This document shows, piece by piece, positions 11,689 to 17,868 of a stretch of DNA of 64,000 nt. The DNA is from Gordonia mangrovi (GTDB taxonomy: Bacteria > Actinomycetota > Actinomycetes > Mycobacteriales > Mycobacteriaceae). The DNA lies in assembly GCF_024734075.1 (NCBI RefSeq), contig NZ_CP102850.1, positions 1,612,001 through 1,676,000 on the forward strand. The letters are read 5' to 3'. Both the position numbers and the translations under genes were made by a program. The notes under the pieces are model-generated. The model saw only the letters and a list, made by a program, of their open reading frames with translations. It searched no databases and was not told the origin of the DNA. Numbering within the stretch: position 1 is the stretch's first letter; the number at the start of each line of letters is the position of its first letter.

Positions 11689-12624
11689 TCAGAAGGGGTA
11701 GCGCACACCGGTCAGCGCTTCGGCGACCTCCCACAGGCGTTTGCCCAGAGCGGGGTCCCGCACCCGCGGGCTCGGCCGCACCGGCACCGGTGGCCCGCTG
11801 AACTCCATCGGGCCCGACGGACCGAAATACTGACCGCCGGTGACCTCCGGATCCGTGGCCGCCCGCACCGACGGCAGCGCGCCGTCGGGTGCCTCCATGA
11901 TGAACGTTCTGCGCACCCGATGCAGCGACGGCGTGGTGAACAGCCACCTGAGCACGCGACCGGAGTCGCGCATGACGCCACTGTGGGTGGCACCGGGATG
12001 GGCCGCCACCGAAATCGGGGTGCGATGACCCGTCGCCGTCAAGCGGCGCTGTAGATGCATCGCGAACACCAGCTGCGCGAACTTCGCCCGCTGATAGGCG
12101 CGGGACGTACTGAACGACCGGGCCAGTGTCAGATCGTCGAAGTCCACGACACCGCCGCGGTGCGCATTGCTGCCCACCGTCACCACCCGACCCGCATCCG
12201 CGACCAGCAGACGCTCGAGCAGCAAGCCCGTCAGCGCGAAGTGGCCCAGGAAGTTGGTGCCGAAATCCATCTCGAACCCGTCGGCGGTCAGATCCCGCCG
12301 CCCGGCCATCACGCCGGCGTTGTTGATCACCACATCCACGACAGAATGCTCGAGGGCGATCTGATTCGCCGCCTTGCGCACCGAACCGAGATCACTGAGG
12401 TCGGTCTGCACCACCTGGACGTCTGCGTCAGGCACCGTTCCCAACACGTCGGCCCGCGCTGCCTCGGCGCTGTCGAGGTTGCGGCAGGCCATCACGACAC
12501 GAGCACCCAGGCCGGCCAGATGTCGCACCGTCTCGAGACCGATTCCGGAATTGGCGCCGGTCACCACCACGACACGACCGTCGATGCGCGGCGCCTGCGA
12601 CGGCCCCCACCCACTCCTGGACAT
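11689..12624 (-). CDS. SDR oxidoreductase, retinol-dehydrogenase-like
   Basis: A 311-residue short-chain dehydrogenase with GANSGIG (residues 23-29), DVVINNAGVMAG, a serine in VTVGSNAH and an active-site YQRAK in SRAYQRAKFAQLVF. The long C-terminus PEVTGGQYFGPSG is typical of the WW-oxidoreductase/retinol dehydrogenase-like group found in many copies in mycobacteria, which act on lipophilic carbonyls or alcohols. The exact substrate cannot be seen. It is transcribed towards the MmyB regulator, with abutting stop codons. The next gene upstream on the same strand ends 60 bases away. Confidence 0.85.
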   Translation of the reverse strand: MSRSGWGPSQAPRIDGRVVVVTGANSGIGLETVRHLAGLGARVVMACRNLDSAEAARADVLGTVPDADVQVVQTDLSDLGSVRKAANQIALEHSVVDVVINNAGVMAGRRDLTADGFEMDFGTNFLGHFALTGLLLERLLVADAGRVVTVGSNAHRGGVVDFDDLTLARSFSTSRAYQRAKFAQLVFAMHLQRRLTATGHRTPISVAAHPGATHSGVMRDSGRVLRWLFTTPSLHRVRRTFIMEAPDGALPSVRAATDPEVTGGQYFGPSGPMEFSGPPVPVRPSPRVRDPALGKRLWEVAEALTGVRYPF

Positions 12625-12684: not shown

Positions 12685-13074
12685 TCAATCCGCGGAGCGA
12701 TGCGCCTTGTGCCCCGACAGCTGCACGGAGCCGTCATCGTGGCTCGCCACGGTAAGGCCATCCACGGCGCTGTCGAGCAGGCGCCACGCATATCCTCGAC
12801 GCCGCAGTTCGACATCGCCGACCAAGTGGCCGGTCACCCGCAATCGCGCATGGGTGTCACCCACCGTGCACTGGCACGTCAACGGGCGGGACTCGTCCGA
12901 GCACTGGATGATCACACTGCACATCGCATCCAGCGCGAGAAGCAGATCAACAGCGCTCGTCTCGGGAACGGCCGTGTCGTCGAGCACGTCGCCGATGGCA
13001 TGCCGGACCAGGGACACCCGCTCGGCCACCGCCGGCACCGTGACCTCGACCGAGACATCGCAAGTGATCTTCAT
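12685..13074 (-). CDS. RsbW-like anti-sigma fold protein, degenerate
   Basis: A 129-residue protein (MKITCDVSVEVTVPAVAERV...) not recognisable from one motif, but it aligns over its whole length with the RsbW-like protein at 16078-16518. LLLALDAMCSVII matches LGVDEICSQLI, and RRRGYAWRLLDSAVDGLTV matches TAGFGWRVVETVTDAQTV. The first of these is the N-box of GHKL ATPases. Here the glutamate is replaced by alanine (Ala50), so kinase activity is unlikely. A SigF-type promoter lies 58 bases upstream. Best guess is a non-catalytic member or decoy in the local sigma-factor switch. The start at 13074 is the first methionine of the conserved part. Confidence 0.6.
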   Translation of the reverse strand: MKITCDVSVEVTVPAVAERVSLVRHAIGDVLDDTAVPETSAVDLLLALDAMCSVIIQCSDESRPLTCQCTVGDTHARLRVTGHLVGDVELRRRGYAWRLLDSAVDGLTVASHDDGSVQLSGHKAHRSAD

Positions 13075-13131
13075 GGCTCCGATCTGTCTGACACGTGGGC
13101 TTCTCACAGGATCGTCATGACGATGATGCGG

Positions 13132-13156
13132 TACCCGCGCGAAGCCGGTGGTAAAC
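13132..13156 (-). promoter_or_regulatory. SigF-type promoter
   Basis: On the minus strand GTTT (13156-13153) is separated by exactly 16 bases from GGGTA (13136-13132). This matches the mycobacterial SigF consensus, with the gene start at 13074 about 58 bases downstream. It is one of three exact copies with identical spacing in this cluster. Confidence 0.7.
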
Positions 13157-13239
13157 AACCCACTCGACGCCGCTCCCCAACGCGGGCGTCCCGGATTACC
13201 TCATCCGCGCCGTCGACCGCGACACCCGGCCGTCTTCGC

Positions 13240-13264
13240 GTTTGCCTCGCGAACCGGCGGGGCA
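13240..13264 (+). promoter_or_regulatory. Possible SigF-type promoter of the dehydrogenase gene
   Basis: GTTT at 13240-13243, a 16-base spacer and GGGCA at 13260-13264 (GGGTA expected). It lies 63 bases before the ATG at 13327. One mismatch in the -10 element makes this a weaker candidate than its neighbours. Confidence 0.35.
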
Positions 13265-13326
13265 CTCTGCCGACAGATCGTCGTCGACCGGAATCCGCGC
13301 CGCGGAACGGAGATTAGGAGTGCTCG

Positions 13327-14505
13327 ATGCGCGCAGTCACGTGGCAGGGCAAGCGAAATGTCAGCGTGGACACTGTTCCCGACCCCAAGATCGAGGAGCC
13401 GTCCGACGCCATCATCAAGGTGACCTCGACCAACATCTGCGGTTCCGATCTGCACCTGTACGAAGTACTCGGAGCCTTCATGAATCCCGGGGACATCCTC
13501 GGCCACGAGCCCATGGGGGTCGTGGAGGAGGTCGGCAGTGACGTCGGGGATCTGCACGTCGGCGACCGCGTGGTGATCCCGTTCCAGATCTCCTGCGGCA
13601 GTTGCTATATGTGTTCGCATGATCTCTTCACCCAGTGTGAGACGACGCAGGTGCGCGAGCAGGGCACCGGGGCCGCGCTCTTCGGGTACTCCGAACTCTA
13701 CGGGTCGGTGCCGGGTGGTCAGGCCGAGTATCTGCGGGTTCCGCAGGCCCAGTTCACCCGCATCAAGGTGCCCACAGACGCGCCCGACTCACGCTATGTC
13801 TATCTCTCGGACGTGCTGCCGACCGCGTGGCAGGCCGTCGAGTATGCCGACATCCCACCCGCCGGGTCGGTTACCGTGCTCGGACTCGGGCCGATCGGGG
13901 ATATGGCGGCGCGGATCGCCCACCATCGCGGAGCTCAGGTCATCGGTGTCGATCGCGTTCCGGAACGGCTGGCACGCCTGGAATCTCGCGGGATAGCCAC
14001 CATCGATCTCGAACGGGTCGACGATGTCGCCGGGGAGATCCGGGAGCGCACGCAAGGCCGCGGCACCGATGCCGTCATCGACGCGGTCGGCATGGAGGCG
14101 CACGGTTCCCCGGTGAACAAGATGATGCAGCGGATCGTCGGCGCCATACCCGACGCCGTCGCCGAACCACTGATGAAGAATGCGGGTCTCGACCGGCTCT
14201 CCGCACTGTATTCGGCGATCGACATCGTCCGCCGCGGCGGAACACTGTCGCTGATCGGGGTCTATGGCGGAACCGCCGACCCGCTCCCACTGATGACGTT
14301 GTTCGACAAACAGATTCAGATTCGGATGGGCCAGGCGAATGTGAAGAGGTGGGTCCCGTCCATCATGCCGCTGCTCGGCGACGACGATCCGCTCGGCGTG
14401 GATTCGTTTGCCTCACATGAACTCCCGCTGGATGATGCGCCGCATGCCTACGACATCTTCCAGCGCAAGGCCGACGGAGCAGTCAAGATGGTCCTCAAGC
14501 CCTGA
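13327..14505 (+). CDS. Zinc-dependent dehydrogenase, formaldehyde-dehydrogenase-like
   Basis: A 392-residue medium-chain dehydrogenase. The catalytic zinc site is built by ICGSDLHLYE and GDILGHEPMGVVEEVG. The structural-zinc loop is CGSCYMCSHDLFTQC, and the NAD(P) loop is VLGLGPIGDMAARIA (about 183-197). The insert KMMQRIVGAIPDAVAEPLM and the 392-residue length fit the glutathione-independent formaldehyde/alcohol dehydrogenase branch. It probably oxidises an aldehyde or small alcohol with NAD+. AGGAG lies 8 bases before the ATG. It sits beside the sigma-factor genes and has a possible SigF promoter, so a role in stress detoxification is plausible. It converges with sigF, 5 bases apart. Confidence 0.85.
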   Translation: MRAVTWQGKRNVSVDTVPDPKIEEPSDAIIKVTSTNICGSDLHLYEVLGAFMNPGDILGHEPMGVVEEVGSDVGDLHVGDRVVIPFQISCGSCYMCSHDLFTQCETTQVREQGTGAALFGYSELYGSVPGGQAEYLRVPQAQFTRIKVPTDAPDSRYVYLSDVLPTAWQAVEYADIPPAGSVTVLGLGPIGDMAARIAHHRGAQVIGVDRVPERLARLESRGIATIDLERVDDVAGEIRERTQGRGTDAVIDAVGMEAHGSPVNKMMQRIVGAIPDAVAEPLMKNAGLDRLSALYSAIDIVRRGGTLSLIGVYGGTADPLPLMTLFDKQIQIRMGQANVKRWVPSIMPLLGDDDPLGVDSFASHELPLDDAPHAYDIFQRKADGAVKMVLKP

Positions 14506-14510
14506 CCGGG

Positions 14511-15449
14511 TCACGCCGAGTCGCCAGCGGCCGCGGCGTCATCCCCGTCTCCGGGATCCGCTGCGGCCCGCTTCGGCGCCATCTCCGCACGCAGCTGAGT
14601 CAACGTGCGCGACAGCAGCCGTGACACATGCATCTGCGAGATACCCACCTTGGTGGCGATCTCGCTCTGCGACATGGAGTGAAAGAATCTGAGCGACAAT
14701 ATCTCCCGCTCACGTTCCGGGAGCTTCTCGAGCGCCGGACGGAGCATGACGAACTCCTCCACCTGCGCGAATCGCTCGTCGTCCTCTCCCAGGGTGTCCC
14801 GGATGGAACGGCTGTCGTCGTCGCCGTCGGGCTCGGCGTCGATGGACATGGCGTTGTACGCCGACCGGGCCATCAGCCCGTCGATGACCTCGTCGACCGG
14901 CATGTCCAGGTGAGCGGCAAGTTCGGTGGGTCGCGGCGAGCGACCCAGCTCCTGGACGAGTTCATCGCTGGCCCGACCGATCCGCAGCGACGTCTCCTTG
15001 GCGCGGCGCGGAACTCGCATCGACCACATGGTGTCGCGGAAATGTCTACGCACTTCGCCCATCACGGTGGGCACGGCGAAGGACAGGAAGTTGTTGCCGC
15101 GGTCGGCGTCGAACCGGTCGACGGCGTTGACCACACCCACGCGCGCCACCTGGAGCAGGTCCTCGAAGGCCTCTCCACGGTCGCTGAACCGTCGTGCGAC
15201 GTGCTCGGCCAGCGGAAGACACCGTTCGACGATCTCGGCGCGCAGTGCGGTTCGACGATCACTGTCGCCCTGTTCGTGCATGCGCCGCAACGACTCGGGC
15301 ACATCGGCGTAGTCGTCACTCCCCGAAGTTTGGCGCCCAGAGCGCGACCCGGCCTGGACGGTCTTGTCGTCCGTCTCGGAGGTGGGAACCGAATCCGAAT
15401 CCGAGTTCACGGCCGACCCCGGCTCGACCGATGGTGACGACGGCAACAC
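14511..15449 (-). CDS. sigF: Stress sigma factor, SigF/SigB family
   Basis: An alternative RNA polymerase sigma factor of group 3. It has region 2 (GEAFEDLLQVARVGVVNAVD, then NFLSFAVPTVMGEVRRHFRD), region 3 (PTELAAHLDMPVDEVIDGL) and region 4 (REREILSLRFFHSMSQSEIA, then ISQMHVSRLLSRTL helix-turn-helix). The length is 312 residues if read from the GTG at 15449, which has GGAGG 3 bases before it. The TTG at 15446, 6 bases after, may be the true start. A disordered Ser/Asp-rich tail of about 45 residues precedes region 1.2/2. The gene lies between two RsbW-like genes and opposite a STAS gene, so partner switching should control it. The site at 15500-15524 suggests that it activates its own promoter. 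Confidence 0.9.
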   Translation of the reverse strand: MLPSSPSVEPGSAVNSDSDSVPTSETDDKTVQAGSRSGRQTSGSDDYADVPESLRRMHEQGDSDRRTALRAEIVERCLPLAEHVARRFSDRGEAFEDLLQVARVGVVNAVDRFDADRGNNFLSFAVPTVMGEVRRHFRDTMWSMRVPRRAKETSLRIGRASDELVQELGRSPRPTELAAHLDMPVDEVIDGLMARSAYNAMSIDAEPDGDDDSRSIRDTLGEDDERFAQVEEFVMLRPALEKLPEREREILSLRFFHSMSQSEIATKVGISQMHVSRLLSRTLTQLRAEMAPKRAAADPGDGDDAAAAGDSA

Positions 15450-15499
15450 AGCCCTCCGATCTGCTTGGCGCGGGTATCGACGATTGAGACAGTATCGAC

Positions 15500-15524
15500 T
15501 ACCCGCGTTGCACGGATCGGAAAC
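15500..15524 (-). promoter_or_regulatory. SigF-type autoregulatory promoter
   Basis: On the minus strand GTTT (15524-15521), 16 bases, then GGGTA (15504-15500), 51 bases before the GTG start of the sigma factor gene. It matches the SigF consensus exactly, so the sigma factor probably transcribes its own gene. Confidence 0.75.
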
Positions 15525-15650
15525 ACGGCTTGCTGGTGTGTGCTGGGCACCGTACGGTGGAGGAAGCGGTTCAGTGAAAAGCTGCATGCGGGCGGCCGTG
15601 GTCTCACGTGTTCCGTCCGCGCTCGATCCCGATTTGAACGGGCGTGCTCG

Positions 15651-16061
15651 ATGAACCTCAATACGCAAACGACTTTCCAACCGTCGCGGACCGTTGAGAA
15701 GTCCACGGACAATGGCTCCACCAGGGGCCTTACCGCCGAGAATTCCTTTTGTGTACAGCGCTTTTCCGGCGAAATCGACATGGCCAGTGCAGCTGATTTC
15801 GCTGCTGCGCTGGACCGCGTGCTGAGCGGTAAACCCGAGTGCGTGGTGCTGGATCTGTCCCGCATCTCGTTCTTCGGTACCTCCGGGCTGCCGATTCTCG
15901 CGCGGTTCGCCTCGGACGCGGCCGACGTGCACATTCCGATTGCCATGGTGTGCCCTCGAGTTGTCGCTCGCCCTCTGGCGGCGTGCGGACTGACCGACTT
16001 CATCGCCGTGTACGAGACCGTGGAGGACGCGGGGACTGCGCTCAACACCCCGCCTCGGTGA
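15651..16061 (+). CDS. STAS-domain anti-anti-sigma factor
   Basis: A 136-residue protein. After a 35-residue disordered start, a STAS domain follows: FSGEIDMASAADFAAALDRV, CVVLDLSRISFFGTSGLPIL, then IAMVCPRVVARPLAACGLTD. The serine in GTSGL (Ser78) occupies the position that anti-sigma kinases phosphorylate in SpoIIAA/RsbV. When unphosphorylated, such proteins bind the RsbW-type partner and free the sigma factor. It is divergent from sigF and convergent with the RsbW-like gene, ending 16 bases from that gene's stop. No convincing ribosome site is visible. The ATG at 15651 is the first start that leaves the domain intact. Confidence 0.82.
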   Translation: MNLNTQTTFQPSRTVEKSTDNGSTRGLTAENSFCVQRFSGEIDMASAADFAAALDRVLSGKPECVVLDLSRISFFGTSGLPILARFASDAADVHIPIAMVCPRVVARPLAACGLTDFIAVYETVEDAGTALNTPPR

Positions 16062-16077
16062 GGTTCGATGCGGTTGG

Positions 16078-16518
16078 TCAGGGCGTACGACTCTTGGCCA
16101 CCCGCACCACGACCTGCCGTCCACCTCCGGTCTCGACATAGGCAACGGTCTGCGCGTCGGTCACCGTTTCCACCACACGCCAACCGAATCCGGCTGTGTC
16201 GAACGCGAAGGCGCTGTCCGGCCAACCGTCGATCTGCACGGTCACGCCCGCCGGTCCGGCCGCGATGGACACTGCGATACTGCTGCCCGGTTCGGCGGCC
16301 GCGATCAGTTGCGAACAGATCTCGTCCACACCGAGTTTCACATCGGCCACATCGTCGACGCTCCAGTCGTCGATGAACAATGTGCGTTCCACCACCGACC
16401 GTACGATCGGCAGACGATCCGCGCCGGCGATCACCGATAGTTTCACCGGAGCCGCAGCGGCCTCGGTGATCACATCCATCACCTCTTGCTCGTCGGTGAT
16501 CCCTCCGAAGTCAGCCAC
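16078..16518 (-). CDS. RsbW-like anti-sigma factor (GHKL ATPase fold)
   Basis: A 146-residue protein starting at GTG 16518, with AGGAG 6 bases upstream. After a 25-residue leader, the domain begins KLSVIAGADRLPIVRSVVER, followed by the N-box helix VADVKLGVDEICSQLI, in which Glu66 is kept but the metal-binding asparagine is not obvious, and the late TAGFGWRVVETVTD block. The fold and neighbourhood indicate an anti-sigma factor that sequesters SigF and may phosphorylate the adjacent STAS protein. Its own SigF promoter upstream would give negative feedback. It is a paralogue of the protein at 12685-13074. Confidence 0.75.
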   Translation of the reverse strand: MADFGGITDEQEVMDVITEAAAAPVKLSVIAGADRLPIVRSVVERTLFIDDWSVDDVADVKLGVDEICSQLIAAAEPGSSIAVSIAAGPAGVTVQIDGWPDSAFAFDTAGFGWRVVETVTDAQTVAYVETGGGRQVVVRVAKSRTP

Positions 16519-16562
16519 TGGAAACTCCTCAAACGACGGTTTCGGTGCAATCCAACCATTCT

Positions 16563-16587
16563 TACCCGGCATCGGCCGGCCCGAAAC
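16563..16587 (-). promoter_or_regulatory. SigF-type promoter of the anti-sigma gene
   Basis: On the minus strand GTTT (16587-16584), 16 bases, then GGGTA (16567-16563), 45 bases before the GTG at 16518. Element sequences and spacing equal those of the two other strong sites. Confidence 0.7.
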
Positions 16588-16624
16588 CTCCGCGCACGGA
16601 TCGATGAACACGCGTTCGATGCCC

Positions 16625-17674
16625 TCAGGACTCCTCTCGCCGGCGCTCACGTTCATCCGCGCGCCGGCGGCGGATACGCTCCCGATGCCCGTAGGTGGCG
16701 CGCAGGACGTCGTCGTAGCTGTCCGCGCTGGAGCCCAGGCCTCCGGCGACCATACCCATCGAGGTCGCCAGCCACGCCAGAACGACATACTCGCGAATGC
16801 CGACCGCCTGCCCCAGAGTCTGGGACATGAACTTCGATTCGATCACCACCACCGCGGCGATGAGCGTCGCGACGAACAATCCGACGTAGAGCACCACTGC
16901 ACTGAAACCGACGGTCCCGATGGTGGCGGTGTTGTACAGCGTCCGCCGCCATCTCGGCATCAGATCGGAGGTCTCCCAGAGTCGATTGTTGACGATCAGC
17001 CACAGCGAGCCCAATGTGACCGACAACACGCTGATCAGAGTCAGCCGCCAAGGGCTCAGCGCATTGGCCATCGACCAGATCGACGAGAAGAAGACGCCGA
17101 ATGATGCGGTTGCCGCGGCTGCCGCGGTCATGCCGGTCAGCGTGGGGATCATCCGCCATGGACGGTTGCCCCGGATCATGCCGGCGACCAATCGCAACCG
17201 ACTCGACATACCCCGCGCGATCAGCAGCTCGGTGCTGCCGTCGTCCCCGCCACGCCAGCGTCCGCCCACCGGACCGGTTGCGGTGCGCTCGCCGCCGGAC
17301 AGTCGAGAAAGGATCGCCTCGATACACGCGACGAAAGCGCGCGTCGGCAACAGTCCCAGGGCCGGGGTGCAGATCACCGCGGCCGACCGAGCGTGGTCGA
17401 GCTCGATGACCACCACATCTCGGTGCTGCGCGCGAGGAAGTTCGGTCACGAAGATCACCGCATCGGTTTCTCCCTCGGCATCTCCGGACCACCCCGAGTC
17501 GAGGTCTCCTTGCGGGGACATGTGCAGCGAGGTCTCCTGGGTGACCGCGAACTCGCGGTACTTGATGGCGCTGTCCTCGAGGAGCCGATGTATCCGCAGG
17601 TCGGCGTGGTCGACGAGCGCGGCGGGTAGTCCGGGTTCGGTGACGAGACGCAGACCCTGGGGGCGTGGGGGCAT
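16625..17674 (-). CDS. Membrane protein of unknown function
   Basis: A 349-residue protein from the ATG at 17674 (MPPRPQGLRLVTEPG), which has GGAG 9 bases upstream. In-frame starts at 17689, 17710 and GTG 17734 give up to 369 residues. The first half is soluble and may be enzymatic or binding (ALVDHADLRIHRLL, VIFVTELPRAQHRDVVVIEL). The second half has four membrane helices (around SFGVFFSSIW, LISVLSVTLGSLWLIV, FSAVVLYVGLFVATLIAAVV and YVVLAWLATSMGMVAGG) and a very basic end. I do not recognise the family. A GGTGT-N16-GGGTA site just upstream would place it in the local SigF regulon and favours the 17674 start. Confidence 0.7.
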   Translation of the reverse strand: MPPRPQGLRLVTEPGLPAALVDHADLRIHRLLEDSAIKYREFAVTQETSLHMSPQGDLDSGWSGDAEGETDAVIFVTELPRAQHRDVVVIELDHARSAAVICTPALGLLPTRAFVACIEAILSRLSGGERTATGPVGGRWRGGDDGSTELLIARGMSSRLRLVAGMIRGNRPWRMIPTLTGMTAAAAATASFGVFFSSIWSMANALSPWRLTLISVLSVTLGSLWLIVNNRLWETSDLMPRWRRTLYNTATIGTVGFSAVVLYVGLFVATLIAAVVVIESKFMSQTLGQAVGIREYVVLAWLATSMGMVAGGLGSSADSYDDVLRATYGHRERIRRRRADERERRREES

Positions 17675-17703
17675 TGGCGGCTTCTCCATATCGCGGGCGA
17701 GCG

Positions 17704-17728
17704 TACCCATCTTGTGGACATTCGACAC
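17704..17728 (-). promoter_or_regulatory. Possible SigF-type promoter, GTGT variant
   Basis: On the minus strand GTGT (17728-17725), 16 bases, then GGGTA (17708-17704), 30 bases before the ATG at 17674. The same -35 variant occurs before the ThDP enzyme gene. If real, translation must begin at 17689 or 17674, not at the upstream GTG. Confidence 0.4.
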
Positions 17729-17767
17729 CCGCACCGGACCGTCGCCATCGCCCTGGGCGTCGGCAGA

Positions 17768-17840
17768 GACAGTTACCCCACTTCGCCAACATCACCTTGG
17801 GTCCGTCACACGGTGATGTCGGCGAAGCGGGGTAACTGTC
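17768..17840. repeat. Long intergenic hairpin element, copy 1
   Basis: Arms 17768-17796 and 17812-17840 are inverted repeats of 29 bases with 27 matches, around a 15-base loop. On the minus-strand transcript the two mismatches become G-U pairs. It lies just downstream of the small gene ending at 17869 and before the membrane-protein gene. The core TTCGCCAACATCACCTTGG recurs, with two changes, in the hairpin at 28472-28532. It could be a terminator or a dispersed palindromic element. Confidence 0.65.
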
Positions 17841-17868
17841 TTCGTCGTCCCCTGCGTCCCTCGACCGG

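What the first reader, a model, noticed from the sequence alone, without database searches (positions are those of the whole stretch)
12685..17728. SigF partner-switching cluster with local promoters that share a 16-base spacer
Within 5 kb lie a SigF/SigB-type sigma factor, a STAS anti-anti-sigma factor and two RsbW-like proteins. Three exact GTTT-N16-GGGTA sites precede sigF, the anti-sigma gene and the second RsbW-like gene (15500-15524, 16563-16587, 13132-13156). Weaker variants precede the dehydrogenase (13240-13264) and the membrane protein (17704-17728). The cluster appears to hold both positive and negative feedback. The gene order differs from the mycobacterial usfX-sigF operon, in that each component has its own promoter.
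Basis: partly seen in the sequence, partly recalled or inferred. Interest (0 to 1): 0.75.

Follow-up and report, generated by a model that had tools for sequence, protein, structure and literature searches.

The report
SigF stress switch with split operon
In this Gordonia genome the genes for a stress sigma factor (SigF), its predicted inhibitor and a second inhibitor-like protein each lie behind their own copy of the DNA motif that SigF is predicted to recognise, a layout that likely replaced the single shared operon of mycobacteria and would let the accelerator and the brake of the stress response be tuned separately.

Summary
Across 33 Gordonia genomes that carry SigF and its UsfX-type anti-sigma factor (RsbW1), a GTTT-N16-GGGTA or GGGCA site precedes rsbW1 in 32; sigF's own site is found only where rsbW1 and sigF are split by a divergent STAS gene (13 of 16), in none of 5 operon genomes and none of 12 of a third layout. 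Corrections: the STAS gene has no SigF site (0 of 28) but a conserved housekeeping-type motif back to back with sigF's; the second RsbW-like protein lacks the ATPase glutamate in 6 of 6 copies and resembles the M. smegmatis booster RsbW3, so positive feedback is likelier than negative; and no RsbW-type kinase or RsbU/SpoIIE-type phosphatase was found in this genome, so the switch may work without phosphorylation. Best reading: a mycobacterial-type SigF partner switch whose operon was split and rewired by promoters. Transcription is predicted, not measured. New variant of a known kind.

The parts
14511..15449 (-). sigF, SigF-type sigma factor; start GTG 15449 or TTG 15446
15500..15524 (-). SigF-type site GTTT-N16-GGGTA before sigF
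   Evidence: kept in 13 of 16 split-layout genomes
15651..16061 (+). STAS gene, predicted anti-anti-sigma factor (RsfB-like); no SigF site upstream
15530..15558 (+). Predicted housekeeping-type STAS promoter TTGCTG-N17-TACGGT, its -35 5 nt from the -35 of sigF
   Evidence: not flagged by the generic sigma-70 scan
15566..15585 (+). Conserved element GCGGTTCAG-N5-AGCTGC just downstream of the STAS -10, role unknown
   Evidence: seen in the unselected alignment; [AG]CGGTTCAG at this place in 27 of 28 genomes; once in window, 0 expected
16078..16518 (-). rsbW1, UsfX/RsbW-type predicted anti-SigF factor (GTG start)
16563..16587 (-). SigF-type site GTTT-N16-GGGTA before rsbW1
   Evidence: 16 of 16 split-layout genomes
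12685..13074 (-). rsbW2, RsbW-like paralogue without the N-box glutamate
13132..13156 (-). SigF-type site GTTT-N16-GGGTA before rsbW2
   Evidence: exact N15-17 site in 5 of the 6 copies found (this one included), one mismatch in the sixth
11689..12624 (-). SDR oxidoreductase 61 nt downstream of rsbW2, possibly co-transcribed
13327..14505 (+). adh, zinc-dependent (formaldehyde-dehydrogenase-like) alcohol dehydrogenase, convergent with sigF
13240..13264 (+). SigF-type site GTTT-N16-GGGCA before adh
   Evidence: 14 of 14 split-layout genomes with adh in the fetched stretch
16625..17689 (-). Membrane protein of unknown family upstream of rsbW1
   Evidence: no Pfam hit
17704..17728 (-). GTGT-N16-GGGTA, 14 nt before the membrane protein's ATG, predicted to give a leaderless or nearly leaderless mRNA
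   Evidence: one-mismatch N16 site 10-14 nt before the start in 7 of 7 genomes where this gene was found

Best explanation
This is, by homology, a mycobacterial-type SigF partner-switching locus whose ancestral rsbW-sigF operon was likely split by a divergent STAS gene, so that sigF, the predicted anti-sigma gene rsbW1 and the paralogue rsbW2 each stand behind their own GTTT-N16-GGGTA site and are predicted to be transcribed by SigF, while the STAS gene has no SigF site but a conserved motif that is predicted to be a housekeeping promoter. Predicted working (inferred): RsbW1 binds SigF; STAS protein made from the housekeeping promoter binds RsbW1 and frees SigF; free SigF raises sigF (accelerator), rsbW1 (brake) and rsbW2. 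RsbW2, which lacks the ATPase glutamate, would pair with RsbW1 and weaken the brake, as reported for M. smegmatis RsbW3. The STAS and sigF promoters stand back to back with their -35 boxes 5 nt apart, so the two polymerases would probably exclude each other. With no RsbW-type kinase or RsbU/SpoIIE phosphatase found here, the set point would be fixed by amounts of protein rather than by phosphorylation.
For: Sites exact and far above chance. Conservation with diverged spacers in 33 Gordonia genomes: rsbW1 GGGTA 16/16 (layout B), 4/5 (A, operon), GGGCA 12/12 (C); sigF GGGTA 13/16 (B), 0/5 (A), 0/12 (C); adh GGGCA 14/14 (B), 0/12 (C); expectation from first-order Markov resampling 0.02 or less for each of these sets. 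The same 33 of 59 genomes carry both RsbW1 and a SigF match of 303 bits or more. SigF+RsbW1 tree: 4 of 5 operon genomes branch first, layout C is one clade at 100/100; 6 of 8 outgroup loci have adjacent rsbW1 and sigF. STAS motif TTG-N20-TASGGT in 13/16 B and 12/12 C, pattern chosen after seeing the alignment; STAS SigF site 0/28. RsbW2: N-box Glu to Ala 6/6, FGW Gly to Ala 6/6. Own-genome kinase search: 13 hits = 12 long proteins read by eye as histidine kinases + RsbW1; the single SpoIIE hit is a PstP-like general phosphatase by eye. M. smegmatis RsbW3 is SigF-dependent, binds RsbW1 and raises SigF activity when overexpressed (PMC7693655); its SigF site lies 56 nt before the gene (PMC4694148), here 57.
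Against: No transcript, protein or interaction was measured. The motif's genome-wide enrichment is modest: 25 against 15 reversed in this genome; 5.11 against 3.20 sites per Mb in genomes with and without RsbW1-SigF while the reversed control also differs, 2.94 against 2.10. Three of 16 split genomes (G162, G201, G221) lack sigF's own site. G204, an operon genome, sits on a long branch inside the split group, and the fork that joins the split genomes has only 80/61 support, so a single split is not proven. RsbW2 was found at this locus in only 6 of 33 genomes. The generic sigma-70 scan found no promoter for STAS. STAS Thr77 or Ser78 could still be phosphorylated by a eukaryote-type kinase, which was not searched for.
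Confidence: 0.72

Rival explanations
1. Same locus and SigF promoters, but an ordinary phosphorylation-driven partner switch: STAS Thr77/Ser78 is phosphorylated by an unlinked kinase (eukaryote-type Pkn or a kinase too divergent to be found) and dephosphorylated by PstP, and the promoters only add mild feedback.
For: This genome has Thr at the acceptor position and Ser next to it and a PstP-like phosphatase. M. smegmatis RsfB is controlled by phosphorylation of Ser63 (PMC7693655).
Against: Acceptor is Ala or Val in 11 of 16 layout-B genomes; an S63A RsfB still binds RsbW1 (PMC7693655), so these would be always active. No RsbW-type kinase was found here, although such a protein from a layout-C Gordonia scores 57.6 bits with the same model. 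Full-length SpoIIE: 0 of 16 in B, 9 of 12 in C, 1 of 5 in A.
Confidence: 0.3
2. rsbW2 is a second brake (negative feedback): it binds SigF directly.
For: It is RsbW-like and has a SigF-type site.
Against: It is far from RsbW1 (25% identity) and lacks N-box Glu and the FGW Gly in 6 of 6; in M. smegmatis neither of the two extra RsbW homologues bound SigF (PMC7693655).
Confidence: 0.15
3. The sites are GC-rich chance matches and the genes are expressed from other promoters.
For: Modest genome-wide enrichment; 9 of 19 exact sites elsewhere in the genome were not assigned a gene start.
Against: Position-specific conservation in 33 genomes at resampled expectations of 0.02 or less per gene set, and downstream genes of the general-stress type (CsbD, Sod, DJ-1/PfpI, Transgly_assoc).
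Confidence: 0.03

Closest known systems
usfX/rsbW1-sigF operon of M. tuberculosis and M. smegmatis
   Same: Homologous sigma and anti-sigma proteins; same promoter consensus GTTT-N15-17-GGGTA; in M. smegmatis a SigF-dependent promoter before chaB plus a SigF-independent promoter before rsbW (PMC7390352, passages)
   Different: There rsbW/usfX and sigF share an operon (PMC10950880, passages). Here rsbW1 and sigF are separated by a divergent STAS gene and each has its own SigF-type site
M. smegmatis RsbW3 (MSMEG_1787)
   Same: Extra RsbW homologue closer to the anti-sigma type than to the kinase type, with a SigF site 56 nt before its start (PMC4694148 passages; PMC7693655)
   Different: RsbW3 has 194 residues with an N-terminal extension; this protein has 129. 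Orthology not tested; binding to RsbW1 unknown
RsfB of mycobacteria
   Same: STAS-only protein, closest solved relative (8ih8_A, E 2.9e-10)
   Different: The controlled Ser is replaced by Thr here and by Ala or Val in 11 of 16 genomes of this layout; no linked RsbW2-type kinase
B. subtilis SigB / SpoIIAB partner switching (recalled)
   Same: Sigma, anti-sigma and antagonist logic
   Different: There one protein is both anti-sigma and kinase; here the N-box Asn position is Gln in RsbW1, and RsbW2 has lost the Glu too (the motif positions are recalled)

Membership tests
Mycobacterial-type SigF partner switch | SigF-type sigma factor with its own UsfX/RsbW1 homologue | tested here: met
   both genes in the same 33 of 59 Gordonia genomes
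Mycobacterial-type SigF partner switch | rsbW1 and sigF in one operon | tested here: not met
   STAS gene on the other strand lies between them; rsbW1 followed by sigF on one strand in 5 of 33 Gordonia genomes
Mycobacterial-type SigF partner switch | Anti-sigma gene behind a SigF consensus site | tested here: met
Mycobacterial-type SigF partner switch | RsbW1 binds SigF and STAS binds RsbW1 | not testable with these tools
   homology only
Phosphorylation-driven partner switching (RsbW2-RsfB type) | Phosphorylatable Ser at the RsfB Ser61/63 position | tested here: not met
   Thr77 in this genome; layout B: Ala 8, Thr 4, Val 3, Ser 1 of 16. Thr could still accept phosphate
Phosphorylation-driven partner switching (RsbW2-RsfB type) | RsbW-type kinase encoded in the genome | tested here: not met
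   PF13581: 12 long proteins read by eye as histidine kinases plus RsbW1; sensitivity control 57.6 bits. A very divergent kinase could be missed, as RsbW2 itself was
Phosphorylation-driven partner switching (RsbW2-RsfB type) | RsbU/SpoIIE-type phosphatase in the genome | tested here: not met
   one partial hit, PstP-like by eye
RsbW3-type SigF booster | Extra RsbW homologue with a SigF-type site | tested here: met
RsbW3-type SigF booster | Forms a heterodimer with RsbW1 and raises SigF activity | not testable with these tools
   needs interaction and reporter assays
RsbW3-type SigF booster | Sequence orthology to MSMEG_1787 | not tested
   that sequence was not fetched

The most novel reading that the evidence does not exclude
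A partner switch that has given up phosphorylation: the antagonist is a permanently active STAS protein, the kinase and phosphatase are gone, and the decision is made by promoter wiring alone. A housekeeping STAS promoter stands back to back with the SigF-driven sigF promoter (mutual exclusion), with SigF-driven brake (rsbW1) and SigF-driven anti-brake decoy (rsbW2). Gordonia then offers a natural series within one genus: coupled operon (A), split with self-driven sigF (B), split with brake-only feedback (C).
Probability: 0.35. Interest if true: 0.68.

Novelty: new variant of a known kind. Interest (0 to 1): 0.5.

Why it matters
How the operon coupling of a sigma factor to its anti-sigma factor shapes a stress switch is hard to study without engineering. 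If the promoters work as predicted, Gordonia has done the experiment: the same two proteins occur in three wirings with three sets of feedback, so the value of fixed ratio, self-activation and delayed braking can be compared directly. A switch without kinase or phosphatase would also show that antagonist dosage is enough to run partner switching.

Tried and rejected
An RNA hairpin in the STAS leader: six leaders were folded; the four of layout B gave z from -1.50 to +0.97 and the two of layout C -1.16 and -2.21, so the conserved element is left unexplained. Rfam gave only two matches below their gathering scores, both to microRNA families.

Counting motifs in genomes with and without RsbW1-SigF: a weak test, because 9 of the 26 'without' genomes carry a more distant SigF-like match, rRNA copies are included and relatedness is ignored.

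A SigF-only tree did not resolve layout B and lost one row (G236); SigF+RsbW1 was used instead. Literature (listings): no paper in the held library holds sigF, anti-sigma and Gordonia together, nor SigF, Rhodococcus, rsbW and 'anti-sigma factor antagonist'; the two with Gordonia, sigma factor and SigF are on Streptomyces by title; five with SigF, Rhodococcus, stress, sigma factor, promoter and anti-sigma are on other subjects by title. Subscription papers are not covered.
Full report
THE OBSERVATION. The window lies at 1612001-1676000 of a 5.39 Mb single-contig genome of the genus Gordonia: fetched relatives match named Gordonia contigs by length, e.g. G090 contig 699369 bases = G. tangerina. 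All five reported sites are present. Three are exact, each with a 16-base spacer, against 0.32 expected for spacers of 14-18 in the whole window. Their distances to the chosen start codons are 57 (rsbW2), 50 (sigF), 44 (rsbW1), 62 (adh) and 14 nt (membrane protein).

THE GENES. sigF scores 291 bits with the SigB/SigF/SigG model, above cut-off. rsbW1 matches M. tuberculosis RsbW in entries 8ih8 and 8jzt (E about 1e-8); the STAS protein matches RsfB, 8ih8_A (E 2.9e-10). rsbW2 matches only other RsbW-like proteins; a word-based search of 5.8 billion proteins, which reaches close relatives only, found itself and one 84% relative. The order is sdr(-) rsbW2(-) adh(+) sigF(-) STAS(+) rsbW1(-) membrane protein(-). 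STAS and rsbW1 converge about 17 nt apart; sigF and adh converge about 6 nt apart.

COMPARISON INSIDE THE GENUS. Of 59 Gordonia genomes, 33 carry RsbW1, and the same 33 carry a SigF match of 303 bits or more; 9 others have weaker sigma matches. All 33 loci were looked at (the window plus 32 stretches) and fall into three layouts: A, rsbW1 followed by sigF on one strand (5; in G204 about 0.35 kb apart); B, rsbW1 - divergent STAS - sigF, as here (16; in G038 about 5 kb separates STAS from sigF); C, STAS - sigF - adh - rsbW1 (12). Exact GTTT-N16 sites upstream: rsbW1 GGGTA in A 4/5, B 16/16, C 0/12, with GGGCA in C 12/12; G204 (A) has only GTTT-N15-GGGCA, 123 nt away. sigF GGGTA in A 0/5, B 13/16, C 0/12. 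adh GGGCA in B 14/14, C 0/12. STAS: none in 28. sdr: none in 10. Expectations from first-order Markov resampling were 0.02 or less in each set. Spacer sequences differ between genomes while the boxes stay, which is what selection on a promoter leaves. In one search, which allows only N16 and a fixed start estimate, rsbW2 counts 1 of 6; with N15-17 and chosen starts it is 5 of 6 exact and 1 with one mismatch (in G239 the start is unsure and the site 136 nt away). The membrane protein has no exact site (0 of 7) but a one-mismatch one in 7 of 7.

HISTORY. In a SigF+RsbW1 tree four of five A genomes branch first (100/100) and C is one clade (100/100); the fork joining B, C and G204 has only 80/61 support, and G204 sits there on a long branch. 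Of 8 outgroup loci, 6 (G145, G036, G171, G195, G188, G175) have adjacent rsbW1 and sigF; G040 and G094 do not. So the operon is likely ancestral, a split followed, sigF gained its own SigF site in B, and in C the brake alone kept one. What drives sigF in C is unknown.

THE STAS PROMOTER. TTG-N20-TASGGT stands upstream of STAS in 13/16 B and 12/12 C, at resampled expectations of 0.00 and 0.01; the pattern was chosen after seeing the alignment. With TANNNT followed by [AG]CGGTTCAG it is 27 of 28 (G218 departs in the element, alignment). Where both promoters were located, the gap between the -35 box of STAS and that of sigF is 5 nt in 9 of 11 genomes, 7 in one and 27 in one. In the 27 sequences, which were picked by that pattern, the second half AGC[TC]G is kept as well although the pattern does not ask for it. 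The generic sigma-70 scan, built on the E. coli consensus, does not report this promoter. Mutual exclusion of the two promoters is inferred from geometry only.

THE VARIANTS. GTTT-N16-GGGCA is the listed SigF site of chaB (63 nt) and of sigF in M. smegmatis, and GTGT-N16-GGGTA 9-10 nt before the start is listed for MSMEG_1131 and MSMEG_6515 (PMC4694148, Table 1 passages; sites assigned by eye in that paper). Both variant sites here therefore belong to known forms.

SECOND RsbW. In M. smegmatis RsbW1 is the anti-sigma factor, RsbW2 the RsfB kinase, and RsbW3 a SigF-dependent protein that binds RsbW1 and boosts SigF (PMC7693655: abstract, passages, sections 18 and 22). The Gordonia rsbW2 gene (its name here is only a label) lacks N-box Glu in 6/6 and the Gly of FGW in 6/6, while RsbW1 keeps both in 33/33; it was found at this locus in 6 of 33 genomes, and the other genomes were not all searched for it elsewhere. 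A decoy role like RsbW3 is inferred.

PHOSPHORYLATION. RsfB is controlled at Ser61 in M. tuberculosis and Ser63 in M. smegmatis (PMC10950880, passages). The residue aligned with the Ser of FLGSVGL in 8ih8_A (taken to be Ser61, two lower than the position in that chain) is Thr77 here; in layout B Ala 8, Thr 4, Val 3, Ser 1 (n=16), in C Thr 11, Ala 1 (n=12). The next residue is Ser in 15/16 B, so phosphorylation there is not excluded. S63A RsfB still binds RsbW1 (PMC7693655). In this genome PF13581 gives 13 hits: RsbW1 and 12 in long proteins that were read by eye as histidine kinases; a dedicated RsbW from a layout-C genome scores 57.6 bits, so one of that kind should have been seen, though RsbW2 itself was not. 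STAS hits: this gene, two sulfate-transporter-like proteins and a glutaminase-like one (by eye), and one further small STAS protein without Ser or Thr at the position (by eye). SpoIIE: one partial hit, PstP-like by eye. In the genus, full-length SpoIIE hits (over 100 bits) occur in C 9/12, A 1/5, B 0/16; this is largely one clade and so few events. Of the ten, five loci were fetched: in L271 the phosphatase is next to a cellulose-synthase-like protein and a STAS protein, L272 has an RsbW nearby, so it may serve another pathway.

REGULON. Of 25 exact sites in the genome, 3 are in this cluster and 3 are one identical rRNA-type sequence; of the other 19, 10 were assigned a plausible gene start 7-192 nt downstream: Transgly_assoc, NmrA, Fe/Mn-Sod, CsbD, GAF-ANTAR, DJ-1/PfpI, metal-sensing repressor, phosphoribosyltransferase, aldehyde dehydrogenase and one without a Pfam hit. 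Some of these ten sites also overlap another open frame. Of the remaining 9, one (L136) has a possible start at 127 nt that was not followed, and the others have weak frames or none. GGGCA sites: 44 against 20 reversed; not followed one by one.

VERDICT. A real, conserved regulatory layout; membership in the mycobacterial SigF family is met for proteins and promoter sites and not met for operon structure and phosphorylation parts. Shown: sites, gene order, conservation, residue losses, absence of hits. Inferred: transcription by SigF, binding, feedback signs, dosage control.

Noticed in passing
window 17756-17852: Inverted repeat, arms of 44 nt at 82% with a 9-nt loop, upstream of the membrane protein; its core occurs at no other place in the window, and among the 281 loci only in L039 and L254, which cover this place.
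   Followed up: partly
window 15566-15585: Element GCGGTTCAG-N5-AGCTGC just inside the predicted STAS transcript, its first half at the same place in 27 of 28 Gordonia STAS genes; regulator site or start-proximal promoter element.
   Followed up: partly
window 17704-17728; L126, L127, L138; L082, L083, L085-L087: A class of SigF-type sites whose -10 box ends about 7-14 nt before the likely start codon (start choice unsure in some), so leaderless or nearly leaderless transcripts are predicted.
   Followed up: partly
L082-L087: In six relatives an SDR-like protein with its own SigF-type site lies beside adh (about 0.9 kb off in L084; Pfam run on L082 only); it is absent from the roughly 250 nt between rsbW2 and adh in the window.
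   Followed up: partly
L275; by eye L276, L278: Gordonia genomes without RsbW1 carry a more distant SigF-like sigma gene next to a ChaB gene (Pfam on L275 only).
   Followed up: partly
L271, L272: Layout-C genomes hold a SpoIIE phosphatase + cellulose-synthase-like glycosyltransferase + STAS (L271), with an RsbW in L272: a partner switch possibly aimed at a polysaccharide synthase.
   Followed up: partly
L273 4068-6023: G207 (operon layout) encodes one protein with SpoIIE, ATPase and STAS domains, like the M. tuberculosis Rv1364c described in PMC7693655.
   Followed up: no
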